Origin: an uncultured Oscillospiraceae bacterium
Lineage (GTDB): Bacteria; Bacillota; Clostridia; Oscillospirales; Oscillospiraceae
NCBI GenBank assembly: GCA_947589545.1
Contig: CANQBA010000011.1
Location: 16,909 to 80,908, forward strand
Direction of reading: 5' to 3'
Length of the DNA: 64,000 bases
The first letter of the stretch is position 1, and each line of letters starts with the position of its first letter. The translations under genes and the position numbers were made by a program. Below are positions 23,583 through 43,283 of this stretch, one piece after another. The notes under the pieces are model-generated. The model did not search any database, was not told where the DNA came from, and saw only the letters and a program-made list of their open reading frames with translations.

Positions 23583-23601
23583 GGACTTGGAGGACTCAGC
23601 A

Positions 23602-24513
23602 ATGCCTATGAAATTCAGAGCTCACGAAACATTTTTTATCAGGAAGGGATGGCTCAGCAAAGGCATGCGCTGTGTAGCGGACAATCCGGAAGTCTTTATT
23701 TCCCGCGAAGAAAATCCCATGGATGTGCTCGGCATTGGCGCGAATATGGTCAAGGCGTTACGCTATTGGCTGCAAGCCGTTGGACTTACCGAAGAACCGG
23801 AAAGAGGCAGACGGTTCCAAGCCTTCACGGCACTTGGTGAATTGATTTATGAGCGTGATAGATATATCGAAGAATTAGGGACCCTTTGTCTATTACAGTA
23901 TCGTCTTGCCTCTCAAAAGGATGACGCCACAGCTTGGTACTTCTTTTTCAACGAGTTTTCCGTTTCAGAATTTTCAAGGGAAGATTATGTTGTTGCCTTG
24001 CAGAAATACATTAAAATGCGCGACGGCGAGGTTGACGTTGCAATCAGGTCACTGAACGACGATTTCCAATGTATTATAAATACCTATCTTCCTCGCTATA
24101 AAGTGAATACGGTGCGAGTATCCCCTGAAAATAATATTGATTGTCCTCTGGGAGAGCTCGGCCTTGTAGATGTTCTTAACAAACGGAAAAAGACTTACAG
24201 AAAGAGCATTCCGGCCAGCAATACCCTTGACCCATATATTATGTTGGCGGTCATAGTTGACAATGCTGGAGGGAAAAAAGAAATCAGTCTGAATGAGCTA
24301 TTGACGGCGCCCTGCAATATTGGAAGAGTATTTAATCTCGATTCAATCACAATGCTTGATGTGCTGTATCGAATCGAGAAACTTGGACTTATCAAAATCA
24401 ACCGCACAGCAGGTCTGGACGTTATAAATATACAAGAAGAACTTGATTTCTATGATTGCGTAGAGCGATATTATGCGTCTATCAATGAGCAAGGTCAGGA
24501 GAGAGCAATATGA
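23602..24513 (+). CDS. sspB: DUF4007 family protein (SspB-like)
   Basis: 303 residues. Opens with MPMKFRAHETFFIRKGWLSK and MDVLGIGANMVKALRYWLQA, the DUF4007 hallmarks, then winged-helix-like segments. To my knowledge the SspB nickase of single-strand phosphorothioation systems belongs here, but I could not check. Start at 23602, after GGAGG with spacing eight. Its stop overlaps the next gene (ATGA), so it is made together with the ATPase. Predicted to nick DNA at modification sites. Confidence 0.78.
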   Translation: MPMKFRAHETFFIRKGWLSKGMRCVADNPEVFISREENPMDVLGIGANMVKALRYWLQAVGLTEEPERGRRFQAFTALGELIYERDRYIEELGTLCLLQYRLASQKDDATAWYFFFNEFSVSEFSREDYVVALQKYIKMRDGEVDVAIRSLNDDFQCIINTYLPRYKVNTVRVSPENNIDCPLGELGLVDVLNKRKKTYRKSIPASNTLDPYIMLAVIVDNAGGKKEISLNELLTAPCNIGRVFNLDSITMLDVLYRIEKLGLIKINRTAGLDVINIQEELDFYDCVERYYASINEQGQERAI

Positions 24514-27500: not shown

Positions 27501-28115
27501 GAAAACTATGATGATGCCGCTGCAGACATTATTGATGCAAAAGGCGTTTTTGATGGGCTTTTGAACGAGCTGAAGCAAGAACTGATTCAAGAAACTAAAA
27601 TGGCGTTTCTCCCCAAAAAAGACAAAAAATCCGGGAAGAACTTATCTCTGACAGACGTGGCAAAAGAATGGTGCGACCGGCTTGATCAAAAGAGCTTTGA
27701 GCAGCTTTTCCCGGATGGAACGGACCGGTTTCTTCAGCATGTAAGGGACATGACGAACGACGAGGAGCTTTTTATAACTCGCCTTGCAAAGCTGGCCACG
27801 GGACTTCGACTCGAGGACTGGGACAGCAAAACCGCAAATCACTATTCTGAATCAATTATCGGCTTTATAAAAACTGCAGAGAAGTTCCACAGTGACGCAG
27901 TCGCCGAGACTATCAACGAAACATCCAGCTATCAGGTGACCTTCGCGGATGAAGAAGGTGTCAATACGACGAGGCGGTTTGACAAGGTCGAAATATCGGC
28001 CCGTGGAAAACTCCTGTTTAAACAAATCACCGCGTCACTTGCAGCGATGGGACAGTCGATTTCTGAACAGGAAAAGAGACAGATTTTAATGGAAGTGCTA
28101 AAGAAGCTTTGCTGA
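24510..28115 (+). CDS. sspC: BrxC/PglY-like large P-loop ATPase (SspC-like)
   Basis: 1201 residues. Walker A GAYGKGKSH (about 60-68) and Walker B VVYDEFSKF (about 239-246) sit in the N-terminal third; the rest holds several helical modules with no enzyme motif that I recognise. Domain layout resembles BrxC/PglY and the ATPase partner of DUF4007 proteins in Ssp systems. Translationally coupled to the DUF4007 gene. Very likely needed for modification, perhaps as a DNA-translocating clamp. Replaces the SMC-like DndD of classic dnd loci, which is absent here. Confidence 0.75.
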   Translation: MRDMISVASGFQYSVNIGYDLGSDDKLRNFIPTKSAINLLEDILLSISPTSTDRARVLIGAYGKGKSHIVLTILSLLLKRDLSLFEKLMPRLRENPRLYQLVLNYYDSDNKILPVVINGSNTSLTQAFLISLQRTLSEYDLVTAMPETNYKAAAGVIVRWEKEFPDTYKEFQKCIDDPAEVFISRLENFDVTAYEVFERIYPTLTSGSVFNPFLGFDVVDLYESVAKSLKSKGYSGIYVVYDEFSKFLEANIVDASVSDTKMLQDFAEKCCRSGDMQLHLMLISHKEISNYIDKLPKEKTDGWRGVSERFKHIHMNNNFTQTYEIISSVIQHKDPLWNTFCEDHERDFDALFNIYRTHQMFTDAQGEISTAIKGCFPLHPVSTFILPRLSERIAQNERTLFTFLSAEGTATLSAFLDEYKDDFSLVTPDQIYDYFEPLLRKEVYAGEIHDTFVLTSTILSQLQEGSIGSKIIKTISLIYILEQFERLCPTMEQIINTYSSSYDVEDIRRAVKDLVEKEFVIYVKRGNDYLRLKQTSGVDIQQKIRDLMELQSGKISTKDILNASNFDNYMYPTRYNDEHEMTRFFSFQFISGAEVTENVDWNIKSESIKADGVIYGIIPDGESELTNIADIIRRTSQGCDRYIFVLPKHYSDVKELVGEYAAVLSLRDQAVDDPVLFDEYEVVFEDLQEVINSFIGAYTRPESYQSVYIHDGDTLNIRRKSGLTETLSRICDRVYDMTPIINNESVNKNEITIMAQNSRNKIISALLRSELEPNLGLTGTGQEVSIMRSTLLRTGIWSEEAGIQQINLHPDDPAMRNMLKTIENFIHEAQQNGRVSFSVLYDRLTSPENHIGLRYGLIPIYVAAVMHNYRQQTVIHGRFEPVPASADVLVQINSDPSGFALEYLDWNPEKENYVARLARAFGEYVVPAEKAGNPYDYVANAMHRWHMALPKYSKESTKRPSGEKLHRRQLEMIKLLRQNISSSDLLFRRLPEAMDYHENYDDAAADIIDAKGVFDGLLNELKQELIQETKMAFLPKKDKKSGKNLSLTDVAKEWCDRLDQKSFEQLFPDGTDRFLQHVRDMTNDEELFITRLAKLATGLRLEDWDSKTANHYSESIIGFIKTAEKFHSDAVAETINETSSYQVTFADEEGVNTTRRFDKVEISARGKLLFKQITASLAAMGQSISEQEKRQILMEVLKKLC

Positions 28116-28129
28116 GGAAGTGAAATTAA

Positions 28130-29275
28130 ATGGCGTATTTTGATAACGCGGCTACCACATATCCGAAGCCGGATGAAGTCTATGCTTTTATGGACAGCTT
28201 CTACCGTATGTACGGAGGGAGTGCAGGCCGCGGAGAATATGCCCTTGCCAACAGCGCCAGAGGACTCATAGATGAGACAAGGAGATTGCTTCAGGAGCTC
28301 TTACATTGTTCTGCAAAGCAAGTGATTTTCACTCCAACGGCAACTATTGCCTTGAACATGATTATTCAAGGAGTGATCAGGGGGGGAGCAAAGAGCGTTT
28401 ACATTAGCCCCTTTGAACATAATGCGGTCACGCGTGTTCTTTATCACTTTGAGCAGCTCGGTCAAATAACTGTTACAGAATTGGCGGTTTCTGAAACGCT
28501 TGAATATGATTTAGCCAGAATACGCTATCAGTTTGATGCTGTTCACCCTGATTTTGTGATTGTGAGCCATGCAAGCAATGTCATTGGCCTGATAGCCCCG
28601 GTGGAAGACATTTTTGCGTTAGCAAAAAAGTATGATGCTGTGACATTAGTAGATATGGCACAGACAGCTGGACTTGTTGACTTAAACGTTGGATTCGATA
28701 CAATTGATTTTGCCGTTTTTGCAGGGCATAAAACGCTGCTTGGCCCAACAGGGCTATCTGGATTTTTGATAGCCCCATCGATCCTTCTGCCGCCAGTCCT
28801 GTTTGGAGGAACGGGGTATGACTCCGCAAATCAGGATATGCCCGACAGCCTTCCTGAAAAGTATGAGATGGGAACCATCAATACGATAGGCGTTGCCGGC
28901 CTGAACGCGGCCCTAAAATGGATAGACCGTCAGACAGTAGAGAAACTTTGCCAGCTGGAACAACTCCACAGGATCAGGCTTTTGGAGATACTGCGTGATT
29001 ACGATTTTGTGACGACTGTAGGAGTCGTAGAAGGCCGAAAGTATGTCGGCATCGTCTCCTGCCTGATCGATGGGATCAGCAGCGACAGCGCCGGGAGCAT
29101 TTTTAGCTCAAAAGGTGTTGCTGTACGGACGGGGCTCCAATGTGCGCCCCGAACGCACAAGAGGTTGGGGACGTTCCCGGCGGGCACGGTACGGTTTAGC
29201 GTAGGACCTTTCACGGATGAGAAGGATTATGCCGAGCTGGCTGCTGCCCTTGACTATATCGCTGAGAATATGTAG
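28130..29275 (+). CDS. sspA: Cysteine desulfurase (SspA/DndA-like)
   Basis: 381 residues, class V PLP aminotransferase fold. PLP lysine in FAGHKTLLGPTG (about K201) and catalytic cysteine in RTGLQCAPRTHKRLG (about C338). Starts MAYFDNAATTYPKPDEVYAF, typical of the group. Supplies persulfide sulfur for DNA phosphorothioation when found beside SspB/C/D-type genes. Fourteen bases after the ATPase gene. It could in principle also serve other sulfur pathways, but gene context argues for the DNA system. Confidence 0.9.
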   Translation: MAYFDNAATTYPKPDEVYAFMDSFYRMYGGSAGRGEYALANSARGLIDETRRLLQELLHCSAKQVIFTPTATIALNMIIQGVIRGGAKSVYISPFEHNAVTRVLYHFEQLGQITVTELAVSETLEYDLARIRYQFDAVHPDFVIVSHASNVIGLIAPVEDIFALAKKYDAVTLVDMAQTAGLVDLNVGFDTIDFAVFAGHKTLLGPTGLSGFLIAPSILLPPVLFGGTGYDSANQDMPDSLPEKYEMGTINTIGVAGLNAALKWIDRQTVEKLCQLEQLHRIRLLEILRDYDFVTTVGVVEGRKYVGIVSCLIDGISSDSAGSIFSSKGVAVRTGLQCAPRTHKRLGTFPAGTVRFSVGPFTDEKDYAELAAALDYIAENM

Positions 29276-29315
29276 TGGCCGATGAACCGAGACAGATCAT
29301 GAGTGGGGGTTGAAT

Positions 29316-31004
29316 ATGTCTGAAATGATCTCGAAGTTTCCGAATGAGAGTTTTGTCGATTATCTCAATACGCTTCATAACGCCAGCGCCAACAATCAGA
29401 GCGCCATCGCGGAATTGAATATCACCAACCCGTTCTTTGCAAAAACGATGGTACAGCGTGAGGTTGGCGAGTACATCAAGAAGCAGCTTGAGGGTGAGCC
29501 CCATATTTTTGTGTTAACAGGACACGCCGGAGACGGAAAAACAGGCTTACTGTATCAAACGCTGAGAGATTGGAATGTCATCAAGGCCAGGGACGGGCTG
29601 AAAACAGAGAATATCGTGGAGTCCCCAAACGGCAGGAAGGTGAACTATGTCAAAGACTTCAGCGAGCTCACCGCAGAGGATAGACGGCCAATCTTAGAAA
29701 CGGCGAAAGCCGCTTGCTCCCAAGGGATAACCACCTTTTTGGTGGCTAACACCGGACCGCTCATCAAGACCTTTGATGAGTGCTTTTCCGATTCGACATC
29801 CGCCTTGCTCCTTGATGCGATCGACAACAACGATGGGCAAACCAAACTATATGACGGGATACCTGTTGCGGTTATCAATGTGGCGACGATAGATAATTCG
29901 ACGTTTGTAAAGCCCTTTCTACATAATCTCCTGTCGGAGGAGCTGTGGAGTCCCTGCAGTACCTGCGGTAAGAGGGACTATTGCCCCATCTATTCCAATC
30001 GCAGATTAATGAATCAGTCGAGTGACCGAATCGACGATTTCATAACGAAACACTATATTTTTCAACAGGAGTATGGCGAGAAGTTGACCATCCGCCAAAT
30101 TGTAGGGCATCTCAGTTTTACCTTAACAGGCGGTTTAACTTGCCAAGGCGTATCGAATAGCAAAAGTGCCCTGTTTAAGTTCCTCTTTTCTAACAACTTC
30201 TTTGGATATAAGGGTATACATATCAACCGAGAATCGCTGAATATGAGGGCCGTTGCGGATATCGCCCGAGCTGCTTATGACCAGAAGCGGCTCAGGGCGG
30301 ATGAATCCTTGTTCATTAAGCGGGACCTGGCTGGTATTTTTACGAAGTATATCGCAGAGCTTCTTGATAGAGAAGGGGAGCGGTTGCACTATAATGAAGA
30401 CTGGCAGCGAGCCGTGCGGCGGGCATATATGTTCTTGAACATTGACACCTCTGAGACGAGCCGAAAAGAGATGCTGCAGGACGTTTTTTCTTACTGGTTC
30501 CCGCGTTATTTACAGCTGAGAAGCGGAGCGCCGGCTTCGGGCGCCGACAAAGAATTGGTTCAGGACGCTCTTCAGATGATTTTTACGGAATCCATTTCCG
30601 GAACAGAAAAAGATATTCCAATCACAATGAAACGTGAAAATGGCGTCTCTCAGAGCGTCCAGTTAGTCTATGATTCGATCGTAAAGAAAAAAGTCAGGAT
30701 AGAGCCTAAAGCGGTTTCAGATTACAGCAAAAGCAAACGGTATTTGATTTACATTTCCGTTGAGGGGGAGCGGGTCAATACACAAATTTCCTTACCCATG
30801 TTTGATTATTTTGAAGAGATCCGGCGGGGGGCTATTGCGACAAATATCGATCCGATGCTCTCCCAGGGGATTGACAGCCTGAAGGCGCAGATCATTTCGC
30901 TGTTTGATGCAGATAGATCGGAAATTGAACTCCTTACCCTGACGGGCTCCAGATGGGAATCTATCATTGCTGAATACGAAGCGGGTGATTGGAGAATTGT
31001 TTGA
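29316..31004 (+). CDS. DptF/SspF-like restriction ATPase
   Basis: 562 residues. P-loop GHAGDGKT (about 69-76) and a cysteine cluster CSTCGKRDYCPIYSNRR near residue 215 that may bind zinc. Length and gene order match DptF of phosphorothioate-dependent restriction. Start at 29316, an ATG after GGGGG, rather than the upstream TTG. In the known systems F, G and H attack DNA lacking the modification. Forms an operon with the next two genes, with only a short gap after the desulfurase gene. Confidence 0.72.
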   Translation: MSEMISKFPNESFVDYLNTLHNASANNQSAIAELNITNPFFAKTMVQREVGEYIKKQLEGEPHIFVLTGHAGDGKTGLLYQTLRDWNVIKARDGLKTENIVESPNGRKVNYVKDFSELTAEDRRPILETAKAACSQGITTFLVANTGPLIKTFDECFSDSTSALLLDAIDNNDGQTKLYDGIPVAVINVATIDNSTFVKPFLHNLLSEELWSPCSTCGKRDYCPIYSNRRLMNQSSDRIDDFITKHYIFQQEYGEKLTIRQIVGHLSFTLTGGLTCQGVSNSKSALFKFLFSNNFFGYKGIHINRESLNMRAVADIARAAYDQKRLRADESLFIKRDLAGIFTKYIAELLDREGERLHYNEDWQRAVRRAYMFLNIDTSETSRKEMLQDVFSYWFPRYLQLRSGAPASGADKELVQDALQMIFTESISGTEKDIPITMKRENGVSQSVQLVYDSIVKKKVRIEPKAVSDYSKSKRYLIYISVEGERVNTQISLPMFDYFEEIRRGAIATNIDPMLSQGIDSLKAQIISLFDADRSEIELLTLTGSRWESIIAEYEAGDWRIV

Positions 31005-31018
31005 GGAGGACAGCCAAG

Positions 31019-32581
31019 GTGAAAGTAAAATATCCGTTGAACGGTTCCTGCGAAAACTTGGAGAATCCTGCTATACGGATCTACGGCAACCGTTTTCACA
31101 ATGACCAGTCTCTATATGAATACCTGATCGAGTTTTTGCTGGTCTTCTCCTCCGCGAAAGCGCCTGATGGCACAGGAGAGATGTCGTTCCATAGCGATGA
31201 GCCCTTGTACTATTATGTGAAACCAAGAAATGGGCTTCGTCGGTTTATTTTCTTTGATCAAGCCAAACGGACAAAAAGGATCCCCGGAGACGAAAGAGCA
31301 AACGAGAGTATCAAGGGGATTTTACTGAAGCATATAGAAGCGGATAAGGAGAGCGAAAAAGAGGAGTTCCTCAGCGCCGTCCAAGACCTGTTTCGGGGTT
31401 ACGCCGCTGTCCTCAAGAATCGCTCCTGGTGTGCGCAGGCCCTTCTCCCTCTTTGCCCAGAGATGATCTTCTGCGAGGAGATGCCTAATGATAAAAAACG
31501 CTTAAAATGGGAGAAAGGTTCAGAAGCTGACAAGGCCGCATTCCGGAAAAAGTATTCTGGAGATGTTGCTGCCGGATATTCCGTTGAGGATACCTTTTTT
31601 GACTCTTCCTTTGACCTGACCAGGCACAATTTCTTGGCCCGCGGGGGAGAGGTATTTTATCTGCACCTGTTACAGGTCCTCAAGGATGACCCTGAGGCAA
31701 AAGAATGGCTCCAATTGTTGCTCGTTAATCTTCTTACCGACAAGAGTTCAGATTTTTCTCAACTGGCCAATTGGATACAGGGCACATGGGAGAAGGAGAA
31801 AAATATTGATCCTAACCACCTTGTGACGAAGATGAATATTGGCTGTATTCCTGCAGGAGCGTATCTTAAATCCGGTAAGTTTGCTGTAGAGGAACTGACC
31901 TGCTTCTTGTCCAATGAGCTTCACCCTGTTAAGCGTGTGGAATTGCTTGCCAAGGGGATTATGTTGCAGATCATGCGAATGCAGGTCGAACAGACGGAAG
32001 AATATCTTTTCAGAGAAAGATTGCCCTGGATCATCGATATGCGCAGCGCCGGGAATAAAACGGTCAAAAAACTCTCTTCCCAGAGCTTCATCAGGATATC
32101 AGAGGCGATCATGAGCGCGATTAATCAGGAAATCATCAACAGTCGAGATCCGCACAAGGAAGGGTATGATTTGACAGAGGAGTATAAGCTCTTTGTCAAG
32201 GCGAGAAAAGAATCGTTGGATATTTTTAAGAGCAAAGGGAAAGAAATACAGTGTATTATCCCTTTAAACGGGCCGGATGAGCGTTTCTCCATTTCGGAAG
32301 ATGTGATTAAATTCTTAGTGCTCTCTTTAGTCCCCGCCGGAGGAAAAATGGATTTAGACAGTTTTTTGGAAAAACTGTATGATCATTACTCCTTCGTAAT
32401 TGGTCCGAACGAATATAAACGCTGTCAAATGACTGATGAGCTTGATAAGGGCCTCTCAGACAGTTTCACTAGCAATAAGGTGGCCTTTCAGAAGTTCCTG
32501 AAGGATGCCGGATTCCTCCGGGATTTATCGGATGCTACTTCCATTGTTGTAAACCCATATAAGGGGGTTGAAATAGAGTGA
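31019..32581 (+). CDS. DptG/SspG-like restriction protein
   Basis: 520 residues. GTG at 31019 follows GAGGAGG and gives VKVKYPLNGSCENLENPAIR; the longer frame overlaps the previous gene. No enzyme motif recognised. The name comes from position and size between an F-type and an H-type gene and from general resemblance. Its stop overlaps the next GTG start (GTGA), so coupling is tight. Probably a scaffold or DNA-contacting subunit. Confidence 0.65.
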   Translation: MKVKYPLNGSCENLENPAIRIYGNRFHNDQSLYEYLIEFLLVFSSAKAPDGTGEMSFHSDEPLYYYVKPRNGLRRFIFFDQAKRTKRIPGDERANESIKGILLKHIEADKESEKEEFLSAVQDLFRGYAAVLKNRSWCAQALLPLCPEMIFCEEMPNDKKRLKWEKGSEADKAAFRKKYSGDVAAGYSVEDTFFDSSFDLTRHNFLARGGEVFYLHLLQVLKDDPEAKEWLQLLLVNLLTDKSSDFSQLANWIQGTWEKEKNIDPNHLVTKMNIGCIPAGAYLKSGKFAVEELTCFLSNELHPVKRVELLAKGIMLQIMRMQVEQTEEYLFRERLPWIIDMRSAGNKTVKKLSSQSFIRISEAIMSAINQEIINSRDPHKEGYDLTEEYKLFVKARKESLDIFKSKGKEIQCIIPLNGPDERFSISEDVIKFLVLSLVPAGGKMDLDSFLEKLYDHYSFVIGPNEYKRCQMTDELDKGLSDSFTSNKVAFQKFLKDAGFLRDLSDATSIVVNPYKGVEIE

Positions 32582-35500
32582 AATACATCGTTGACACAAT
32601 CATCAAAACCATTAGCAGTCAAAATCCCCGGCCGAATGAGCAGCTTCGCATTCGCATAAGCGGATTTGAGGATGTGAGAATTTATGAGGCTGTCGCAAAG
32701 CGCCTTCATGATACCTATGACGGGAGACTTGCCGTCGAGACGAGACTGTCAAAAGAGAAGTGTAATGAGTTTAAAAAAGATTCTCAATCGAACCAAACAG
32801 CCATGCTCTCATTAGAGGCGCATGGTTGGGTCGCCATGAAGAATAGCCTCACCTACTATAGAAACCTTCCGCTGAGTGAGGCTCAGTTGATCGTGATCAT
32901 GGGCACCGAGGCGGTGGACGATCAGGGCGGATTAAGTGACTTTTATTATCTTGACCCTGAAAAGCTGGTTTCTGAGCTTGTCCCGAATTACTATTTAGCG
33001 TTTTCACCTATTGCGGGCGGGTGGACCGATGACGAGAAGAAATGCGTCAATAAACTGTATGGTGATTTGTTTTCCCTTGTGCCGATCAACCTCTGCAAAT
33101 TCAGTGATTTGGCAGATTCATGGGGAACGCTATCTACTATAGAGGATTTCGTTGAAAGGTTTTTTGAGCAGCTCCCGTTGTGGGGCTTATGCCGTGTTCG
33201 AGACACGCTTCCAACGGTCAATCAAATCATCAAGACCGGCAGGAAGAACCTGCTTCAAACGAACTATGACTTTATTACCCGTAAACTGTTTGCAAAAATG
33301 ACGATCAAACAGTTTAATAATTATTTAAATAAAGTTGAGTTATATCAGAACGGCACAGAAACGAACAAGGAGAACACAAAAAAGTACCCTGAGGATTGGA
33401 CAGGCTGGTCAAATCAGAGCGTAAAGTCCCTACTGACATATTCCAATTCCCTCTCTCAATTTATCCGCGGAGAGAACATAGAGGAAAACCGCAGGCAGCT
33501 CCAAGGAGTGGATTTTGCCATTACGGAGTACGTTCTGGGAATCACACTGCCTGATGTCGTTGTTCACAAGAAAAAGAAGTTGTCCGTCACTGGTGACCCC
33601 TATTTCGCTTTTTTAAAGGCGATATGCGCCTCAATTGCCTGTGAGGATACTGAGCCCTTCGACACGATCAGGGTAAAGGTATCTTCAATTGAGCTGGCCG
33701 ATGCTGTCGACTCGCTGATAGATGCGGATGAATCGGCGCAATTAGCAACTGCCTGGAAAAAGGTATGTTGGTTTGCCGGGGGAGTCATCGAGTATATCAA
33801 TAGCATCGGATTTGAGGTCAATGGAAACGAAATAAGCATCGAGAGCGATGATTCTTCCCCATTTGACTCAAAATGTGTGGAGCTTAATATCTCAGAGGGG
33901 CTCATTTCTACAGCGGCGGCCAGCAAAAAGCTGGACAAAGTGAGTTTTGAGGTGGCTCACTACCACCAGGGGAAGTCCACGGACATTCGGCACAGCTTTG
34001 AGTGGACCTTTACCCTTCACGACGATTGGGTCATCGCCTTTGACCAGATGTGCTTGCAATACGAGCAATGGGATGAAGATCAAATCGACGCAGCCGTACC
34101 TGTGTTGACGGTAGACAAGTATGAGGCTTTGATGAACGCGAAGAGCGAAGAGGAGTTCCTTGACGTCTTTGAGTTATCCTCCCTCTCCTTTGACTTGAAC
34201 CTAAGCGCCGAGGCGCAAAAACAGCTTGTGCCCGATGGGACGATCGAATGGCGTGCGGAGTATTCAGCCCTTGGCCGGAGCTTTGTGAGTTTTTGCAGGA
34301 GCCTTACCAGCGTTGGATTCTACGCGGATATTCTTCAAAACCAGAAGGGCGAGTGCAAAGCCAACCGGTTTATTGACGGATATGTCAAACTCGGCGATTT
34401 GATCGTGAACAGTACCTTCACTCAGAAGTCAGAGTGGGTGATGGATTATTTTACCCATGCTTTTGCTATTGAAAGTTCTACAAGAGCGATCACAACTGGT
34501 GAAAACGATACCGGGTGTATCATTCCGCCCTTCCACCCCGCTATACTGCAAAAAATGATTGATAGGGTCGTTTTTGTGGCGGATGGGTGCCGTGAATGGC
34601 TTCATGATAACGAGGAGATGCACGCCTCGTTTGATAAGATCTGTTCCATGGTGAATGAGCTGGCTCAGCTGTCACAGATCCAAGAGGGGGTTGACATTTT
34701 CCCCAGTATAAAGGGTACATTTTTTGGAACAACACAGGGTTTTGCCAACTACTGCATTTGCGGGGAATGCGAAAGATCTTCTAAAATGCGGATGACAGCC
34801 CTTATGAAGAAAGACGCCGTGTTTGACGATGATTTTTCTGACGGAGCTCTCAAGACAATGAACGTCTCAGCAAAAATGTTTGCTGATGTTCTGGAGACGT
34901 ACAAAAAGGCACTGCCGAACTATTCTTTTAATCTCTCCATAGCGGTGATCAATCCAGAGGACCTGCAGCCAATCATTGCGGCTCTCTATCAATATATCAG
35001 CACAGTAAAGAAAGAGCCCGGAGCAGATGAAAAAGCCATTCAAATCAGATTGCATGTCCTTGTTCGTCCTAAAAACAAGGGGGGGAAGAACTATCTGTCC
35101 TACTGGGCAAATACGTTCTTCAATCAAGATGAAAATGTCGATTTGAAAATCTATCTGAACGAGTGGAATAACAATGACGACCTTGAAAAGCTGTTGGACA
35201 CGAATCTGGACCTGATTTTCCTGATGGATGTGTTGGTGCTGAACCAACTGCGATTTGTGCGGCAAAATGCGGAATCGAGTGGAAGCGGGCTCAGCGACTG
35301 CCGGTTTCCCATTGTGTTTAAACCGGCACCTGTTTCGGTTGCATATGTCAAGAGAAGTATCGAGCTGACACAACAACAATTTGGCGCGGCAACGATCCAC
35401 AGTCAGGTCGTTTACTACAGGGAGACCTACGAGTCATTCCCTTACCAAAAACAGCTTGTCGTTCGAGAGGCGAGTATTGACAAAGAACGCAAGGACTTGA

Positions 35501-37860
35501 TTGTGATGCTCCACCGAAAATCCAATTGGGTAGTTTGTGTGGACAGCGGGATGGACGGTGCATTGCTCCGAGACAGGGAAGGCAAAAACCAGGATTATTC
35601 TATTATCGGCTTCAGCACAGGTAAGGGGCCGCATGGGCAATATAACCTGACGATAACAGCTAGAAATTCTATTATCAACGCTGTTGAGGCAAAGCTAAAA
35701 AGGAGACTGCAAAAGTCCTTTTCCTGGGACAAGTTGAAAACGACGGTGGCGGCTCGAGTCTGCATGGATGAGGCCAGGAATCTGGACGGGGTGAGTTTGC
35801 TAAGTGCCATCAACCCGAAAGACGAAAACATCCATGAGTTTTTGGCCTATGTCCTTACTTCTCTCCAGGCGAAAAAGGAACGCAGCGCATCAGCTCTGCA
35901 GGTCGTGGTTCATCTCGATTCCTATCAGCACTGGTTTGAGAGCAACATCCTTGAGGAGAAGGTCGAGAACAGATCAAGACCTAATTTCCTTCAAGTGTCG
36001 GCGGACATTGGCGACGATGGCAAAATCCATCTTGACGCAACCGTCATAGAATGCAAAATCGCAAAATATGACAATGCGGAAGAGCGAAAAGCCGATGCGA
36101 TCCAGCAGGTCAAACACGGGATAGAGCATCTTTCAAAACTGTTTGACCCAAGATCGACGTCCATTCGCCGCCGTTATTGGTTCGCACAATTATATAGAGC
36201 TTTGGCCTTTTCGCAAATCACGTTCCAATCGGATACGCTGGCGTTTCAGCGCCTTTCCGAGCAGATGCGAGACATTCTCGAGGGCAGCTTTGAGATCTCT
36301 TGGTTCGGGAAGATCATGGGCTATTGGAAGGATATGCCCGGAGAGAATGAGATCATAACCACCATGTCCATGGTCCCCATGATCAAGTTACATGAGGTTC
36401 CGCAAAAAAGGATCCAGAGGATACTCCTTGATGATGACGATGCTGCGGTCGAGTTTGTGTCAGTTGTCGAGGAGGACGAAACAGATATCCCCGAGGAAGA
36501 GGAGGACGAGAGCGTTTCCGTTCAAGCCGCCCATGAAACAACTCCTGCGAAAGAGACTGCGGAAGAGGTTTCGACAGACCTGAGCGCGACAAACGAAAAC
36601 AGTTACTCCGGCGAGACTGCCTCTACCTCTCAGGAAGAAGAGAAGGCCCCCGTGCTTGAACCGGTATTGGATACGGGAAAACAGCCGACGCCCCCCTCCC
36701 AAGCTAAAACTGAGAAGCCTGAAGTTATCCAGAAAAGAGCTCTGGAGGATGTCAGAGTATTCATCGGAAAGGACAAGGCCGGGAATAAAGTCTTTTGGGA
36801 TTTTGGCCATCCGAAACTTGCTAACCGCCATCTGCTCATAACCGGCACTTCCGGCCAAGGAAAGACCTATAGCATTCAGGCCATGTTGAAGGAGCTGGCC
36901 GAGAACGGTATCTCCTCTGTGATTTTTGATTACACAGAGGGATTCCGCGAGGACCAGCTTGAACCGGCGTTTAGAAACGCTTTGGCAGATCGAATCTCTC
37001 AACAGGTCGTTTATGTGTCGGGGATTCCCATTGATCCCTTCAGACGTCATGAGATCGAGATCGGAGATTTTAAGGTGCCGGAGAAGGTTTCAGACGTCTC
37101 TCAGAGGATCGCCGCCATCTTCACACACGTCTATAACTTTGGCGAACAGCAATTTGGCGCTATATACTCAGCGTGCAGTGACGCCATGAACACCTACGGG
37201 GACCAGACAGATATATTCAAATTTAGGGAAAAACTCAAGGAGCTGGGCAATCCTGCCGCAAAATCGGTCCTGACAAAGATGGCCCCGTTCTTTGACAGCG
37301 TGGAGTTCCAAAAGGATGCCGAATTTGACTGGAACTCAGTTATCCGCTCTGATGGGTCAATCATCATTTTCCAGTTGACGCATTATGTGAGGGAGATCCA
37401 GGTGATCATCACGGAAATGATGCTGTGGGACGCTTGGCATTATTTCAAAAAGAATGGTGATAAGAACACGCCCTTTGTAGTGGTGCTTGACGAGGCGCAG
37501 AACCTCTCCATGAAAGACGGTTCTCCCGCGGAGGTCATCCTACGGGAGGGAAGGAAATTTGGCTGGTCAGCGTGGTTCGCTACGCAAAGTCTGAAATCAC
37601 TGTCGGAAAATGAGGTAGTCAACCTCCGCCAGGCTCCATTTTCACTCTATTTCAAGCCTACGGATGATGAGATCCTTAAGATCGCAAAGCAGATCGATCC
37701 CACATCCAGCAACAGCTGGGTGACCCAGATCAAGGGATTGCACAAGGGGCAGTGCGTTGTAGTTGGTGACCGAGTTCGCACGGATGGTACTTTTGGTACA
37801 TTCAAGCCAACGGTCACGAATGTCACGTCATTTGAAGAAAGAGAACATGAAGAAGTATAA
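32578..37860 (+). CDS. DptH/SspH-like large protein with nuclease-like motif and HerA/FtsK-type ATPase
   Basis: 1760 residues. The C-terminal ~370 residues are a HerA/FtsK-type translocase: Walker A GTSGQGKT (about 1422-1429) and VVVLDEAQNL (about 1634). Before it lies an acidic low-complexity linker (about 1298-1387, rich in E, T and S). At about 1153-1160 the sequence DATVIECK gives a D...ExK pattern reminiscent of a PD-(D/E)XK nuclease. A CICGEC cluster lies near residue 720. The GTG start is coupled to the preceding gene. Matches DptH in size and layout: translocase plus nuclease of the restriction arm. Confidence 0.75.
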   Translation: MKYIVDTIIKTISSQNPRPNEQLRIRISGFEDVRIYEAVAKRLHDTYDGRLAVETRLSKEKCNEFKKDSQSNQTAMLSLEAHGWVAMKNSLTYYRNLPLSEAQLIVIMGTEAVDDQGGLSDFYYLDPEKLVSELVPNYYLAFSPIAGGWTDDEKKCVNKLYGDLFSLVPINLCKFSDLADSWGTLSTIEDFVERFFEQLPLWGLCRVRDTLPTVNQIIKTGRKNLLQTNYDFITRKLFAKMTIKQFNNYLNKVELYQNGTETNKENTKKYPEDWTGWSNQSVKSLLTYSNSLSQFIRGENIEENRRQLQGVDFAITEYVLGITLPDVVVHKKKKLSVTGDPYFAFLKAICASIACEDTEPFDTIRVKVSSIELADAVDSLIDADESAQLATAWKKVCWFAGGVIEYINSIGFEVNGNEISIESDDSSPFDSKCVELNISEGLISTAAASKKLDKVSFEVAHYHQGKSTDIRHSFEWTFTLHDDWVIAFDQMCLQYEQWDEDQIDAAVPVLTVDKYEALMNAKSEEEFLDVFELSSLSFDLNLSAEAQKQLVPDGTIEWRAEYSALGRSFVSFCRSLTSVGFYADILQNQKGECKANRFIDGYVKLGDLIVNSTFTQKSEWVMDYFTHAFAIESSTRAITTGENDTGCIIPPFHPAILQKMIDRVVFVADGCREWLHDNEEMHASFDKICSMVNELAQLSQIQEGVDIFPSIKGTFFGTTQGFANYCICGECERSSKMRMTALMKKDAVFDDDFSDGALKTMNVSAKMFADVLETYKKALPNYSFNLSIAVINPEDLQPIIAALYQYISTVKKEPGADEKAIQIRLHVLVRPKNKGGKNYLSYWANTFFNQDENVDLKIYLNEWNNNDDLEKLLDTNLDLIFLMDVLVLNQLRFVRQNAESSGSGLSDCRFPIVFKPAPVSVAYVKRSIELTQQQFGAATIHSQVVYYRETYESFPYQKQLVVREASIDKERKDLIVMLHRKSNWVVCVDSGMDGALLRDREGKNQDYSIIGFSTGKGPHGQYNLTITARNSIINAVEAKLKRRLQKSFSWDKLKTTVAARVCMDEARNLDGVSLLSAINPKDENIHEFLAYVLTSLQAKKERSASALQVVVHLDSYQHWFESNILEEKVENRSRPNFLQVSADIGDDGKIHLDATVIECKIAKYDNAEERKADAIQQVKHGIEHLSKLFDPRSTSIRRRYWFAQLYRALAFSQITFQSDTLAFQRLSEQMRDILEGSFEISWFGKIMGYWKDMPGENEIITTMSMVPMIKLHEVPQKRIQRILLDDDDAAVEFVSVVEEDETDIPEEEEDESVSVQAAHETTPAKETAEEVSTDLSATNENSYSGETASTSQEEEKAPVLEPVLDTGKQPTPPSQAKTEKPEVIQKRALEDVRVFIGKDKAGNKVFWDFGHPKLANRHLLITGTSGQGKTYSIQAMLKELAENGISSVIFDYTEGFREDQLEPAFRNALADRISQQVVYVSGIPIDPFRRHEIEIGDFKVPEKVSDVSQRIAAIFTHVYNFGEQQFGAIYSACSDAMNTYGDQTDIFKFREKLKELGNPAAKSVLTKMAPFFDSVEFQKDAEFDWNSVIRSDGSIIIFQLTHYVREIQVIITEMMLWDAWHYFKKNGDKNTPFVVVLDEAQNLSMKDGSPAEVILREGRKFGWSAWFATQSLKSLSENEVVNLRQAPFSLYFKPTDDEILKIAKQIDPTSSNSWVTQIKGLHKGQCVVVGDRVRTDGTFGTFKPTVTNVTSFEEREHEEV

Positions 37861-38656
37861 TTTGAACTTTCATCAAACTTTTCCTCCAACAGCCGAGTAC
37901 ATTACGCGGCTGTTGGAGGTGTGCGATCATGGAGAAGCCCTCACAAAAGAACAAATCTCCGAGCTTACGGGGATACCGACAGGGACAAGCAGCGGGAAGG
38001 TCGAGCCACATATCTGCTACGGGGAATATATGGGCCTGTTGCGGGATGACCGTGCCGAGGGAAAACACCTTTTGCGGCTGACGTCTCTTGGTAAAGAGCT
38101 TCTGGAGCAGGATCCTGGTCTGCGAGAAAAGGTATCGACCGCCGTTTGCCATGCGAGGATCACATCCCGTTACGGCGGTGCGACACTTTGGACAGTGATC
38201 ATAAAGGATATATTCCCAAAATACCCGCAGGGGATCAGCGATGCGCTTCTTAAGGATGAACTGGAAAAGAGATATGGCATGCCCACGAAAACCGGTCCCT
38301 TCTTCAGCTCCTACTCTGGCATGTTCGATAACCTTGCACTGTTCAATAAAACGGGAAACCTGGTCGGCTTGGGCAGCGGGATTATAGATAGGGAATTGCT
38401 CTACGTTTACGCTTACGCCCTTTTGTATGAGTGGGAAAACGCATTTCCGGACCAGGTGGAAATCACCGCACCGGAGCTGGGCTCCCTGAGTATTGCTGAG
38501 ACATTTGCCTTTTCGGGAAAAGTGTTTTACGAGGTCATTGAGCTGCTGGCAGAGAAGGGGATCGTTCGCTTCAACCGTCAACTTGCTCCGTATACCCTTT
38601 TGCGTTTGCGTGGTTCAGAGGATATAATACCGTCCCTTTATAGCGAACTTTGCTGA
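37847..38656 (+). CDS. Winged-helix/DUF4007-like protein, unassigned member of the island
   Basis: 269 residues. Opens MKKYNLNFHQTFPPTAEYIT with LTKEQISELTGIPTGTSSGK; the FHQTFP opening and helix-turn-helix resemble DUF4007 proteins, but the match is distant. A second region reads SRYGGATLWTVIIKDIFPKY. The start overlaps the H gene by 14 bases. It precedes a second BrxC-like ATPase, repeating the DUF4007-ATPase order seen at 23602-28115. Not part of the canonical Ssp or Dpt sets. Function unknown; adaptor or sensor is a guess. Confidence 0.6.
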   Translation: MKKYNLNFHQTFPPTAEYITRLLEVCDHGEALTKEQISELTGIPTGTSSGKVEPHICYGEYMGLLRDDRAEGKHLLRLTSLGKELLEQDPGLREKVSTAVCHARITSRYGGATLWTVIIKDIFPKYPQGISDALLKDELEKRYGMPTKTGPFFSSYSGMFDNLALFNKTGNLVGLGSGIIDRELLYVYAYALLYEWENAFPDQVEITAPELGSLSIAETFAFSGKVFYEVIELLAEKGIVRFNRQLAPYTLLRLRGSEDIIPSLYSELC

Positions 38657-38675
38657 TGAGTGGGAGGCCGTAAAT

Positions 38676-41600
38676 ATGAGATTTGGCGAAGTATTGTCTT
38701 TCCGAAAAGATATTTTCTTTGACGGAGCCGTACAGATCGATTGGTTTTATAACCCGGTACGGACGAAGACCGTTGCGGAGAACTTTGTATTCCACGGCAG
38801 TGAATACTTTGGCGTAAGTGATTCGGGTGGCAAAAAACTGACCGATACGGTCCAGTTTGTCCATGACATCGTCATGAAAGTATCTGACGACCAGCATGTG
38901 AACCCTCTTTCCCTTGCTATAGCTGGCTATGGCACCGGAAAGTCGCATTTGGCGGTCACACTGGCGGATCTGCTCTCTGGTGAAGACTATCAGCCTGATG
39001 TCCATAGGACCATCATCAAAAATATTGCGGCAATAGATGGGCAAAAGGCCGCCTTGATCGCTCAAGCCACCGGGCGCCCTAACCTGGTATTGGTTCTCAA
39101 CGGGATGAAGGACTTTAACCTCAACTATGAGCTGCTCAGAGCCGCACAGAGATCACTTCGCCTCTATGGTTGCTCTGATGACAATTTGAAAAAACTGAAC
39201 CGAGCGATAGAAACGGCATTCCGCTTTTTTGAGCGCAATGCCTCCTCCTTGCTCGGCCTGTTTGAAGAAAAGGCCCGTTCTTTCGGTTATTCACAAACGG
39301 GTCAAGAGTTGGTTGATATACTGCGTCTACAGCTTGGTGAGGAAGAATCGGCGTTTGATGTGATCAACGCTGTCTACAATGAAATAAATGGCAACGAGAT
39401 CCGCTGGGATGAGGGGGTTTCCGCGACCTCAGTTTTAGAGACCTTGCTGAGTGAATACTGCGGGATCAGCGGCCCCTTTAACAAGATCGTTCTCATCTTT
39501 GACGAGTTTGGAAGATATTTAGAGTATGCGTCTGCGACCACGACAGCGCGTTCAGGAGATTCCGCTCTTCAGCAGATTTTTGAGTGCGCCCAGAATGCGG
39601 AAGGGGCCATTCAAGTCGTTAATTTCATCCAGTCCGATATTAAGAGTTACCTGCAGCGCGTCGATCAGACGAGCAACATCAGCAGATACATAGGCCGGTA
39701 TGACGCCAGCGATAAATATTATCTCTCATCAAACCTGGAAACCGTTTTTGCCAACCTTATTCAACGTGTTGATAAGGATGCCTTTGGAAGGACGATCCGT
39801 CCTTGGCAGCAGGGGAGAGAGGCCCTTTGGAATGATATTTTCAAGGACATGAATCGCTGGCTTCCCACCAAGGGTGTGTGGAAGGACTACTCCTTGTTCC
39901 GCCAGGTCGTTGTTGAGGGGATATATCCCCTTCACCCCTTGGCGACTTACATGCTGTCACAGCTATCAGACTATTTACAGAACCGCTCCTCGCTGATGCT
40001 CCTGGGGCGATATGTGAACGAGTATGAAAATACAGAGCTCACCCCAGAAGCGATTCCTTTAGTCTACCCCGAGACCTTGCTGTCGGGGGACTTATTTACG
40101 GAGATGCTGTCCGCAGAGGAAGAGGGACGGCAGTACAGCCAGCACTGTATTCGATACAGTAACATCCTCCGAAAATACGAGGATAAGCTGTCTGACCATT
40201 CTAAGATGATCCTGAGAGCGAACCTTGCTATGCGCATCCTTCGCTGCAGGATCGACAGCTATGAGGACGTCAAGCACGCAATCAGTATTTTTTCTGGACT
40301 TGATCAAGGGGTCATCGAGGAAGAACTCGTATGGCTTGAAAACGAGTATGCGATCCTCGGATACGACGAGCACTCATACTGCTTCGATTTTTTGGAGGAC
40401 TCCAGTGGTGCCCATGATTTCAAAACGTTTTTCAAGCGGCTTCGGGCAAATACAGCTTTTTCATACAGTGTACTTGAAGAATCGAAGATCCGGGAATGGG
40501 CCGATGTCCTTACGCCCCAGACATCCAATTTTGCCGCGAAACACAAGATCAAAACCAACGAGTGGCAATATGAGCAGGATCTCTTCTCAATAAACGAACT
40601 GTCGGAACCCTTTGTTCAGACCTGCATAGAGGCCTGGAAAGCGGCCATCACTCCTGATAAACTGAAAGGAAAACTGATTTGGCTTTACCTGAACAGGGAT
40701 TCAGCAAGCAATGCGTTGGAACTGGCCTGTTCTCTGGCTAAGAAGGTCGAGGGAACACCGATCGTGTTCATGCTTCTGAATGATACAGAGGACAGACTAA
40801 ACAACGCCCTGTGCGACTATCTCGCTCTGCAAGCTGTCTCAGAGGCTGACCGACAGAAATATGGCCGCCATTATATTGATAAGCTCGAGCAAACGGAAGA
40901 GAATATCAAAAATGCCTTTGATCAACTGAAAAAGCAGAGACAAAGGATCACCGGGCACGGCGTACAAACTCTCGAGAGCCGTTTGGCGGTCGCATTAACA
41001 GATATCTTTGAGAACGTTTACCCGAAGGTCATCCCCTTTGATTTTGACGGATTTGACAGCAAGCAGCCCGGAAAAGCGAGAAAAGCATTTTGTTCCATCG
41101 TCCGTCTGCTCCTATCGGGGTCGGTCAACGGAGATACGATCCATTCGTTTCCCTCCGAAGTCAGGAACCGTCTTGAGGCGACACTTTTTCATACAGGTGC
41201 TTTTTCCTGGAAGGTCATTAACGCAAATTATCAGATCATCCCTCCCGAACAGAAAAATGTGCGGGCTGTTTATGAGGAGATCGTTGATATGCTTCCCGAG
41301 GGAAACGAGATCCCTCTGGACAGATTGATCGCCAAATTGGTCGCACCCCCTTACGGCCTGAATGATTACGTCTCCGTGTATTTGCTGTTTACCCTGTGCG
41401 CAAATATGAGCTATTGCCTGCGTGTAGTGGTGAATGGAGCAGTATACAGCATTGCGGCATGGAGAGATGAAGTTATACAGGACAGCAAAATCGACCTGGG
41501 GACAATCAGGAAGTCCACATTGAAGCGAGTCAATGCCGGCGCAGTGGCTGACAGCTTTTTGCGGATGTTTGCTCGGATAGATAACAATGTGGATATCGGC

Positions 41601-43283
41601 CAGGTTGACGCGCTTTCACAAGAGTTGGAGACTTTGAAGCGGGCGGAGAATATTCCGGAAGCCCTTAATGCTCAGTACCAGCTTGCGCTCAATAAGATCC
41701 AGGAAGGGCGCCGTATCAAAAAGAGATGGGATGGTCTCAAAGATGAAGTGAATGAAAAATACGGTGAATTTCTGGACAAGAGAGATGTCTATTCCGGGCT
41801 GTTGGCGATTCAGAAGCTTGGAGGCATGTCCTTCTACAATTGTTTTTCTGATTCACCATATGCGATGACGGAGGAGCAGAGGAACGAGATAACATCCCAG
41901 AGACAAGAAATAGAACAATTTGTAAATCCCTTCCTCCAGGGGTGGATCTTAGAGCAACGTTGTAAAGGCGTTGAGAGCATTTCTCAATATCGAAAACATA
42001 TGGAAAGGCTCAAGAATCTTCTCCAAGATGTGGGCTACGATACAGCTGCTAAACAGGTAAAGGACAGGGCCGAACAGGAGTTGAGCAACGTTGAGAATAT
42101 CAGGGCCCGTCAGCAGCTCCGCTCTAACTGCTCTGATTATCTGCAAAACTGTGTTGTCAAGGCTGTGGTCCCCTATACTCGCCTGGTTGAATGGAAAAAG
42201 CAGGGGGAGGTGTTGCTGGGCCAAATCCAGAAGTTTTCCGCTTCTCTGGGCAGTGAAGCGGAAGGAATAAATAAGAATATTTCCAATCGGGTGGCTGAGG
42301 TCGATAAGTCCATTGAACGGATCAAGAAGGATATGAATGACATCTATGATGACATTTATTCCGTTTCCAGCGTCGAAGACATCAGCGATATGATCAGCAG
42401 GATTCAGCAGGTTTGTCAGAAGGGGATTCCCTCGACGGACATTGCGGATTTTGAAGAACTTAAGAGTACGCTTGAATCCTTTTTGACTGACATCAGGGCT
42501 CTTTCGGACTGCCAAGAGGATTGGGAGGCTTTCAATATAGAGCATGATGAGCTGATGAGGAAGTATGCGGATAATGAATATGATTTCGATGTTGTCTCCA
42601 TACTTGAGCAAGTGTCCGCTGCCATTCAAGATTCGCTCAAAAAACGTGATGTTGACTGGTCTGCAAAATACCTATCTAAGGCTCTGAACAGCCGTGTGGA
42701 TCTGCTAGCCTGGGTAGACGGCACTCGAATGACTCCCAAGTATCTTTCCGAAGAGACGAAAGCCAAGTTCTTAGAACGCAGTAAAGAGGTCGCCGAGCGC
42801 CTGAGCAAAGCTAAGATCGACGACGTGATCTATAGCTTTATCAAACTGGAAGAGAAGGAAAAGGAGCTGTGCTTTGACCGCCTGATAGAGATATACCAGA
42901 ACCATGATACAAACGAGCCAAACGTTATCGAAGCCACCATCTCGCGGAACAAGAAATGGGACCTTGAGGAATGGGTCGTACTGGCCAAGCTCTATTTCGA
43001 GAACAGAGGAAAAACTCGCACTGAACTCGCAGATGAACTATCTGCGCTCTCTGCGATGCTGGTCCGTAGAGCGGACATCCTCGAAATAGAGCATGACGGG
43101 AAATACCGGAACGTCAATGGCCTTGCCATGCAACTTGACCGGATCAAGTACATTGATACAAAGGGCGAGAGAGGACTATCCGCCTACAGCGAGTTAGCGG
43201 AGGCAGCCGTCTCCATGTACCATGTTGACCGGGAAGGGTTTGAGCTGATCGCCAAGAAATGTTGGGAGAAGTATGAAAAATGA
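38676..43283 (+). CDS. Second BrxC-like large ATPase
   Basis: 1535 residues. Walker A GYGTGKSH (about 84-92), Walker B IVLIFDEFGRYLE (about 272-282), then a long multi-helix body with coiled-coil stretches (QKEGRRIKKR and VAEVDKSIERIKKDMND region). Same broad class as the 1201-residue ATPase but not a close copy. It starts 20 bases after the winged-helix gene with a GGGAGG site. Its frame stays open after the TGA at 43281-43283 for 38 more codons (see findings), so the annotated end may be a nonsense change. Confidence 0.72.
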   Translation: MRFGEVLSFRKDIFFDGAVQIDWFYNPVRTKTVAENFVFHGSEYFGVSDSGGKKLTDTVQFVHDIVMKVSDDQHVNPLSLAIAGYGTGKSHLAVTLADLLSGEDYQPDVHRTIIKNIAAIDGQKAALIAQATGRPNLVLVLNGMKDFNLNYELLRAAQRSLRLYGCSDDNLKKLNRAIETAFRFFERNASSLLGLFEEKARSFGYSQTGQELVDILRLQLGEEESAFDVINAVYNEINGNEIRWDEGVSATSVLETLLSEYCGISGPFNKIVLIFDEFGRYLEYASATTTARSGDSALQQIFECAQNAEGAIQVVNFIQSDIKSYLQRVDQTSNISRYIGRYDASDKYYLSSNLETVFANLIQRVDKDAFGRTIRPWQQGREALWNDIFKDMNRWLPTKGVWKDYSLFRQVVVEGIYPLHPLATYMLSQLSDYLQNRSSLMLLGRYVNEYENTELTPEAIPLVYPETLLSGDLFTEMLSAEEEGRQYSQHCIRYSNILRKYEDKLSDHSKMILRANLAMRILRCRIDSYEDVKHAISIFSGLDQGVIEEELVWLENEYAILGYDEHSYCFDFLEDSSGAHDFKTFFKRLRANTAFSYSVLEESKIREWADVLTPQTSNFAAKHKIKTNEWQYEQDLFSINELSEPFVQTCIEAWKAAITPDKLKGKLIWLYLNRDSASNALELACSLAKKVEGTPIVFMLLNDTEDRLNNALCDYLALQAVSEADRQKYGRHYIDKLEQTEENIKNAFDQLKKQRQRITGHGVQTLESRLAVALTDIFENVYPKVIPFDFDGFDSKQPGKARKAFCSIVRLLLSGSVNGDTIHSFPSEVRNRLEATLFHTGAFSWKVINANYQIIPPEQKNVRAVYEEIVDMLPEGNEIPLDRLIAKLVAPPYGLNDYVSVYLLFTLCANMSYCLRVVVNGAVYSIAAWRDEVIQDSKIDLGTIRKSTLKRVNAGAVADSFLRMFARIDNNVDIGQVDALSQELETLKRAENIPEALNAQYQLALNKIQEGRRIKKRWDGLKDEVNEKYGEFLDKRDVYSGLLAIQKLGGMSFYNCFSDSPYAMTEEQRNEITSQRQEIEQFVNPFLQGWILEQRCKGVESISQYRKHMERLKNLLQDVGYDTAAKQVKDRAEQELSNVENIRARQQLRSNCSDYLQNCVVKAVVPYTRLVEWKKQGEVLLGQIQKFSASLGSEAEGINKNISNRVAEVDKSIERIKKDMNDIYDDIYSVSSVEDISDMISRIQQVCQKGIPSTDIADFEELKSTLESFLTDIRALSDCQEDWEAFNIEHDELMRKYADNEYDFDVVSILEQVSAAIQDSLKKRDVDWSAKYLSKALNSRVDLLAWVDGTRMTPKYLSEETKAKFLERSKEVAERLSKAKIDDVIYSFIKLEEKEKELCFDRLIEIYQNHDTNEPNVIEATISRNKKWDLEEWVVLAKLYFENRGKTRTELADELSALSAMLVRRADILEIEHDGKYRNVNGLAMQLDRIKYIDTKGERGLSAYSELAEAAVSMYHVDREGFELIAKKCWEKYEK

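What the first reader, a model, noticed from the sequence alone, without database searches (positions are those of the whole stretch)
37847..43283. Second DUF4007-like plus BrxC-like pair attached to the phosphorothioation island
A small winged-helix protein and a 1535-residue ATPase continue the operon after the H gene and repeat the order of the SspB-SspC pair. They are not part of the canonical sets known to me and may be a third arm (sensor or replication block), perhaps akin to archaeal Pbe genes.
Basis: partly seen in the sequence, partly recalled or inferred. Interest (0 to 1): 0.78.

Follow-up and report, generated by a model that had tools for sequence, protein, structure and literature searches.

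The report
Second DNA-reader pair for sulfur-mark restriction
The two genes at the end of this bacterial operon are a diverged second version of the SspB-SspC pair, which in related systems takes part in putting sulfur marks on DNA; they travel with the FGH genes of the predicted DNA-restriction module in bacteria of many phyla and likely help that module find and attack foreign DNA that lacks the marks.

The parts
21867..23582 (+). D: PAPS-reductase sulfurtransferase (SspD role, BrxP-type with ferredoxin-like tail)
   Evidence: PADLOC BrxP 6.4e-81, SspD 3.3e-12; Pfam PAPS_reduct 5.5e-32, weak Fer4 matches
23587..24513 (+). B: SspB (DUF4007), modification-side DNA-binding protein
   Evidence: Pfam DUF4007 1.7e-83; PADLOC SspB 2.9e-57
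24510..28115 (+). C: SspC, modification-side AAA+ ATPase
   Evidence: PADLOC SspC 9.1e-131
28130..29275 (+). A: SspA/DndA cysteine desulfurase
   Evidence: PADLOC SspA 2.4e-38; Pfam Aminotran_5
29310..31004 (+). F: SspF-type P-loop protein
   Evidence: PADLOC SspF 5.7e-35; nSTAND_NTPase5 match below its cut-off
30989..32581 (+). G: SspG-type protein
   Evidence: PADLOC SspG 2.6e-33
32578..37860 (+). H: DndH/SspH-type protein with a HerA-like ATPase at its C-terminus
   Evidence: PADLOC DndH 9.1e-74, SspH 4.9e-22; Pfam DUF87/HerA; chimeric similarity
37847..38656 (+). x: second SspB-like protein, 269 aa
38676..43283 (+). Y: second SspC/BrxC-like AAA+ ATPase, 1535 aa
38925..38945 (+). Walker A of Y (residues 84-90, GYGTGKS)
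   Evidence: Y85, G86, G88, K89, S90 invariant and T87 nearly so in 27 aligned Y proteins
39501..39515 (+). Walker B of Y (residues 276-280, DEFGR)
   Evidence: D276, E277, F278, G279 invariant and R280 nearly so in 27 aligned Y proteins
42888..43283 (+). C-terminal extension of Y (about residues 1405-1535), absent from most relatives
   Evidence: in the 60 rows shown, homologues align to about residue 1410 or stop before it, except P0157 and P0140, which cover the extension; no Pfam match

Best explanation
Genes x and Y are a diverged second SspB-SspC-type pair whose sequence distances follow F, G and H, and they likely serve as the restriction side's own DNA reader (x) and ATP-driven loader (Y), which would bring the predicted FGH nuclease-translocase to target sites that lack the sulfur mark. 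In this reading the operon holds two parallel target-finding machines. SspB-SspC, with SspD and SspA, would write phosphorothioate at its motif. x-Y would scan for the same or an overlapping motif; x senses the unmarked site with its winged helices, and the AAA+ domain of Y assembles on DNA there and docks or licenses F-G-H, whose H carries the predicted nuclease and HerA motor. Shown here: the homology and predicted folds, the intact Walker motifs, the operon, the recurrence, and distances that follow FGH. Inferred: DNA reading by x, ring assembly by Y, contact with F-G-H, and the motif being shared. BREX type I offers a precedent: a single BrxC may control both modification and restriction there (PMC13326643, abstract and two sections read). 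Here the two jobs would be split between two ATPases.
Against: FGH can work without xY: SspFGH of V. anguillarum FF-93 protects E. coli with only IscS-SspBCD (PMC8092258), and 7 Ssp-linked FGH loci here lack the pair in the stretch fetched. Thus xY is not needed by every FGH. In L008 xY follows a Pbe module with no FGH, so it may act without FGH. Whole cassettes can sit between H and x (L025, L038, L045, L049). The distances of x to SspB and Y to SspC also correlate more than all 2000 permutations, so the contrast with FGH is one of degree, and for Y with H over C it is thin. Co-inheritance within one operon does not show physical contact. Nothing computed here shows DNA binding, motif sharing or sensing of the mark.
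Confidence: 0.55

Rival explanations
1. x-Y is a second writing pair: it guides SspD to a second DNA motif, so the operon marks two sequences.
For: x and Y are homologous to SspB and SspC, which belong to the modification machinery, and SspB is a nicking protein needed for the mark (PMC8092258 introduction). The sulfur enzymes A and D are in the same operon.
Against: No second SspD or SspA in the window operon. Distances of x and Y follow F, G, H more than B and C. SspB-SspC also occurs with Pbe, BREX-4-like genes and plain FGH without xY, so writing does not seem to need it.
Confidence: 0.13
2. x-Y is a brake: it holds FGH off DNA until infection, as BrxA binds BrxC and lowers its DNA binding in BREX.
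For: SspFGH without marks damages the host (PMC8092258). BrxA binds BrxC and inhibits its association with DNA (PMC13326643 discussion). xY goes with one part of the FGH tree only.
Against: Plain SspFGH is held in check by the marks alone, with no xY. Y keeps the motifs of a full ATPase motor, more than a brake needs.
Confidence: 0.15
3. x-Y is an independent third defence arm that only shares the transcript, for instance a replication block.
For: Retained behind a Pbe module without FGH in L008; cassettes intervene between H and x in 4 loci; canonical SspFGH works without it.
Against: No intact stand-alone xY seen in 48 loci: the one case without a neighbouring restriction module is the truncated L048, and L031 ends at the contig edge. 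Distances follow F, G, H. No effector domain recognised in x or Y by Pfam, NCBIfam or PADLOC.
Confidence: 0.12

Closest known systems
SspABCD-SspFGH (PMC8092258)
   Same: SspA, B, C, D and F, G, H are all present in one operon with PADLOC matches.
   Different: Described as a three-gene restriction module. Here it has five genes, and H carries a DndH/HerA-like C-terminus (region 1139-1767 matches Priestia DptH at 1.3e-161), while H proteins of Ssp loci without xY align mainly upstream of the HerA part.
SspB-SspC pair of the same system
   Same: Fold, order and homology.
   Different: x is a separate clade, not a local duplicate; the near-invariant N122 of the SspB alignment has no conserved counterpart in x; distances follow the restriction genes.
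BREX type 4 (PMC12839542, section 34 and passages)
   Same: Phosphorothioation with DUF4007 and BrxC proteins. A Pseudanabaena plasmid with BrxL (L249) has a second DUF4007-BrxC-like pair beside SspB-SspC, and that DUF4007 groups with x (98); L071 shows a similar layout.
   Different: The window operon has no PglZ or BrxL match; its restriction part is FGH.
BrxC-BrxA of type I BREX (PMC13326643)
   Different: BREX uses one BrxC for both jobs; this operon has two such ATPases.
PbeABCD (PMC6459918, PMC10853773 passages)
   Same: A restriction module that can accompany Ssp modification (10 of 20 neighbourhoods fetched).
   Different: No homology: PbeC is a CxC ABC ATPase, PbeA a PLD-nuclease-helicase protein.
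HerA/FtsK capture systems with an Orc/Cdc6 ATPase and triple winged helix (PMC10853773 section 22)
   Same: A HerA motor together with an Orc-like AAA+ and SspB-related winged-helix protein.
   Different: Those are described apart from FGH and with an inactive nuclease inside the AAA+ protein. The sections read do not mention an FGH operon with such a pair; figures and supplements were not available to me.

Membership tests
SspABCD-SspFGH | SspB, SspC, SspD (and SspA) modification genes | tested here: met
   PADLOC matches in order D-B-C-A; D scores better as BrxP (6.4e-81) than as SspD (3.3e-12)
SspABCD-SspFGH | F, G, H genes of the Ssp type | tested here: inconclusive
   F and G match SspF and SspG; H scores far higher as DndH than as SspH and looks chimeric
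SspABCD-SspFGH | Restriction module of three genes | tested here: not met
   Five genes F-G-H-x-Y here and in many relatives
SspABCD-SspFGH | Phosphorothioate marks and protection against phage | not testable with these tools
   Needs wet work
SspB family (DUF4007), for x | Sequence profile and fold of SspB | tested here: met
SspB family (DUF4007), for x | Lies inside the SspB clade | tested here: not met
   x is its own clade, SH-aLRT 99
SspB family (DUF4007), for x | DNA nicking needed for the mark | not testable with these tools
   Catalytic residues not given in the papers read
SspC/BrxC AAA+ ATPases, for Y | N-terminal Orc/Cdc6-like AAA+ with intact Walker A and B | tested here: met
BREX type 4 | PglZ and BrxL present | tested here: not met
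   No match among the nine operon proteins
PbeABCD | PbeA PLD-helicase and PbeC CxC ABC ATPase | tested here: not met
   No Pbe match for x or Y, nor among the matches listed for the other seven
HerA/FtsK capture systems with Orc/Cdc6 | Inactive nuclease inserted in the Orc/Cdc6 protein | not tested
   No domain-level search for it was made in Y

The most novel reading that the evidence does not exclude
Sulfur-mark defence in a wide lineage of Ssp-FGH systems runs on two complete DNA-scanning machines of common descent, one that writes the mark and one that checks for it; the checking pair x-Y is a portable reader that can be plugged onto different restriction modules (FGH, and in one genome PbeAC), which would explain how a sparse, patchy mark can still decide self from non-self.
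Probability: 0.35. Interest if true: 0.78.

Novelty: new variant of a known kind. Interest (0 to 1): 0.62.

Why it matters
Phosphorothioate systems mark only about 10-15% of their motifs in the cases studied (PMC8092258, introduction read), so how restriction tells self from foreign is open. A restriction module with its own SspB-SspC-type reader gives a handle: swap or delete x-Y and ask whether target choice changes. It also suggests that Ssp-FGH is at least two lineages, one with five restriction genes. The PADLOC library used here matched x and Y only weakly or not at all, so such tools would miss them.

Tried and rejected
Pbe kinship: rejected by the family scans and by the published domain account. 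The idea that xY adapts Ssp marks to any Dnd-type restriction module: rejected, because 10 of the 20 Pbe neighbourhoods fetched have SspB and SspC beside Pbe and none has xY (20 of the 23 PbeA-positive genomes were fetched; L207 ends just after the Pbe genes, but its genome gave no Y), and 7 Ssp-FGH loci also lack it. Local duplication of SspB-SspC: rejected by the tree. x as a copy of G: no similarity.

The SspH model search matched 231 of 249 genomes, apparently FtsK, and was useless. Sequence search of solved structures gave nothing significant for x or G and only weak matches to other proteins for Y (best E 0.0019, exocyst). G of L026 found no plasmid. Window Y found 3 plasmid records; the one I opened (L249) is not an xY locus. 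Pfam gave no domain for the C-terminal extension of Y. In the VIA-align lists rows below the ones quoted were not used. The part of Y after residue 730 was not folded.

Rows dropped: 29 of the 77 loci are not Y loci (L050-L052 and L054-L078 hit SspC/BREX-type ATPases or, in L078, nothing; L079 matches only the Y extension). 7 of 28 tabulated loci were left out of the distance test because a gene was missing or short. The tree used 54 of 115 distinct sequences. L255, in the no-xY group, has no SspB or SspC in the DNA fetched. G184 holds only a fragment of Y.

Not-in-print claim: rests on searches of an open-access library; supplements, figures, bioRxiv and most subscription journals were not searchable, among them the 2020 SspE paper and the 2024 BREX type 4 preprint (seen only as citations).

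Full report
What is there. The operon runs without a break from 21867 to 43283 on the + strand: D, B, C, A, F, G, H, x, Y. By family scans B and C are SspB and SspC, A is SspA, D is a BrxP-type SspD, F and G match SspF and SspG, and H matches DndH better than SspH. The finding concerns x (37847-38656) and Y (38676-43283). Neither has a strong match to any family in Pfam, NCBIfam or PADLOC.

Where it occurs. A scan of named genomes gave 77 loci, of which 48 hold Y. In 48 of 48, x is directly upstream of Y. In 41 the gene before x is H. In four, H comes first and a cassette intervenes: BrxD and BrxHI-like genes in L025 (L038 has genes of similar size, not scanned), HEC-01A/B in L045 (L049 alike in size, not scanned). 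In L008 a PbeA-PbeC module precedes x (PADLOC E 2.1e-247 and 1e-163). L031 ends at the contig edge. L048 is a truncated remnant with no restriction genes beside it. The record titles name 13 phyla for 47 of the 48 (22 are Bacillota); many are metagenome bins.

Modification genes. Longer upstream DNA was fetched where contigs allowed. On the same contig, 27 of 48 loci show SspB, SspC or SspD, and 22 show all three (in L018 SspC is in two pieces). The other five show part: L022 and L025 an SspC piece and SspD, L035 and L037 SspD at the contig edge, L038 an SspC-like protein near the edge and no SspD found. In the remaining 21 the contig ends upstream before the place of these genes, except L009, where A precedes F and D-B-C lie on another contig of the genome, and the remnant L048. 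Orders seen: D-B-C-A-F-G-H-x-Y, exactly the window's, in L007, L010, L011 and L046; B-C-D-(A)-F-G-H-x-Y in L015, L017, L024, L026, L029, L034, L040, L042, L044 and, with its cassette, L045; F-G-H-x-Y-B-C-D in L004, L005, L006 (D turned round), L032 and L047; F-G-H-x-Y-D-B-C-A in L053. Some of these have broken frames, such as H in L004 and F in L032. No DndD, DndE or DndB match was found in the xY loci examined, apart from a weak DndD match of the PbeC protein in L008.

How common. In genomes drawn from the window's own phylum, with the window's genome counted, Y occurs in 9 of 398 (one, G184, only a fragment), DndH in 10 of 398, PbeA in 23 of 398. Eight of the ten DndH-positive genomes carry Y. 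The other two are G183, a canonical Dnd locus with DptF, G and H, and G342, where a DptH-like gene lies beside a DndD-like one. Of 60 genomes searched as relatives, 3 match: the window's own, G012 with a true Y (1.0e-246), and G009, where the weak match is SspC. Five loci fetched from the phylum sample show B, C, D, F, G, H, x and Y (G427, G129, G332, G237, G194), two of them with A (G427, G194).

FGH without the pair. Dnd-linked DptFGH on the Priestia plasmid and in G183, and DptFGH alone on a Levilactobacillus plasmid, lack xY. Seven Ssp-linked FGH loci lack it too in the stretch fetched: L247, L248, L250, L251, L252, L253, L254. In a quick tree of G these, plus L255, form one side (SH-aLRT 96), and the 27 G proteins of xY loci fall in two further groups (97 and 92); one origin of the association is not ruled out, nor is it proved. 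The H proteins differ as well: in xY loci residues 1139-1767 resemble Priestia DptH (1.3e-161), whereas the H proteins of Ssp loci without xY align mainly before the HerA part. A canonical DptH (G183, L178) matches there only weakly, so the type of HerA half varies among Dnd systems too.

Whose module is it. Over the 21 of 28 loci with all seven genes, pairwise distances of x correlate with Y 0.91, G 0.92, F 0.87 and H 0.87 but with SspB 0.64 and SspC 0.72; Y correlates with G 0.94 and H 0.85 but with SspC 0.70. Rank correlations agree. Resampling loci keeps the differences (share at or below zero 0.0025 for x with H over B, 0.0205 for Y with H over C). The weaker correlations are themselves above all 2000 permutations, so modification and restriction genes are not independent. 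x is a single clade against SspB (99). So I read the pair as an old part of one FGH lineage, not a repeat duplication of the neighbouring SspB-SspC. SspB itself mixes: near relatives sit beside FGH-xY, Pbe, plain FGH or BREX-4-like genes.

How it likely works. From BREX (PMC13326643: abstract, discussion and one results section read), BrxC forms dimers and ring-like assemblies with a pore that could hold DNA, is regulated by BrxA and BrxB, and may balance modification and restriction. SspFGH damages unmarked DNA (PMC8092258, sections 4, 6, 7 and 9 read). I infer that x reads the unmarked site and Y, using ATP, loads or licenses F-G-H there. None of these steps is shown here. The strongest result against a general need is that SspFGH of V. 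anguillarum works without such a pair.

Known or new. PMC10853773 (sections 18, 21, 22, 25 and passages) describes FGH as three universal components and, separately, HerA systems with Orc/Cdc6 ATPases and SspB-related winged-helix proteins. PMC12839542 (section 34 and passages) describes DUF4007 and BrxC in BREX type 4. I saw no account of FGH followed by its own SspB-SspC-type pair in these texts or in searches; figures and supplements were not available. I therefore call it a new variant of a known kind.

Noticed in passing
L008 / L134 (Clostridium sp. D43t1): D-B-C-A, a small gene, PbeA, PbeC, a 172-aa protein, then x-Y: the pair retained behind a Pbe module instead of FGH.
   Followed up: partly
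L202, L204-L211, L215: Ten of 20 fetched PbeA neighbourhoods are Ssp D-B-C-(A) plus PbeA-PbeC plus a conserved protein of about 175 aa, so Pbe pairs with Ssp marks as well as with Dnd.
   Followed up: partly
L248 and L249 (two Pseudanabaena plasmids): The same Ssp B-C island carries FGH in one and a second DUF4007, a BrxC-like protein and BrxL in the other: a swap of the restriction slot.
   Followed up: partly
L257 (G000:C43:1-19900): The window's own genome holds a second PT-type locus: an 850-aa PAPS-reductase protein (a DUF4007 match lies in this frame), an SspC-like ATPase of 1157 aa, then 810- and 477-aa proteins not scanned, a layout like BREX type 4.
   Followed up: partly
window 43574-44182: A SLATT_5 two-TM effector-type gene follows Y after 290 bases; PADLOC RTasSLATT 7.7e-43; not seen beside Y in the other loci.
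   Followed up: partly
window 32578-37860 (H): H looks chimeric: Dnd-type C-terminal half with HerA, Ssp-like middle.
   Followed up: partly
L139:8472-13034 (F): F of the Desulfopila locus is 1521 aa with NERD nuclease and protein kinase domains before the SspF part, like PglW; the window's F is 564 aa.
   Followed up: no
L045 7300-9125; L025 1711-9027: Whole defence cassettes (HEC-01A/B; BrxD plus BrxHI-like helicase) lie between H and x on the same strand.
   Followed up: partly
L079:9980-10927 and window 42888-43283: The C-terminal extension of Y resembles part of a 315-aa protein with a methyltransferase domain, suggesting a mobile domain (27% identity, E 6e-5).
   Followed up: no
L034 and L035: The Y loci of two metagenome bins labelled as different phyla match Y alike (25% over residues 2-1334), with x and H of equal and F of near-equal length, a possible binning error.
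   Followed up: no
L247, L251, L250: A pair of an annotated ATP-binding or histidine-kinase protein and a 640-715 aa hypothetical protein sits beside or inside Ssp-FGH loci of Agrobacterium, Sinorhizobium and Chlorohelix.
   Followed up: no
L135 11437-15698 (Herbivorax, L009): Upstream of A in this xY locus lie a HD-CE/ACP-domain protein and a WD40-repeat protein where SspC would be expected; D-B-C are on another contig.
   Followed up: no
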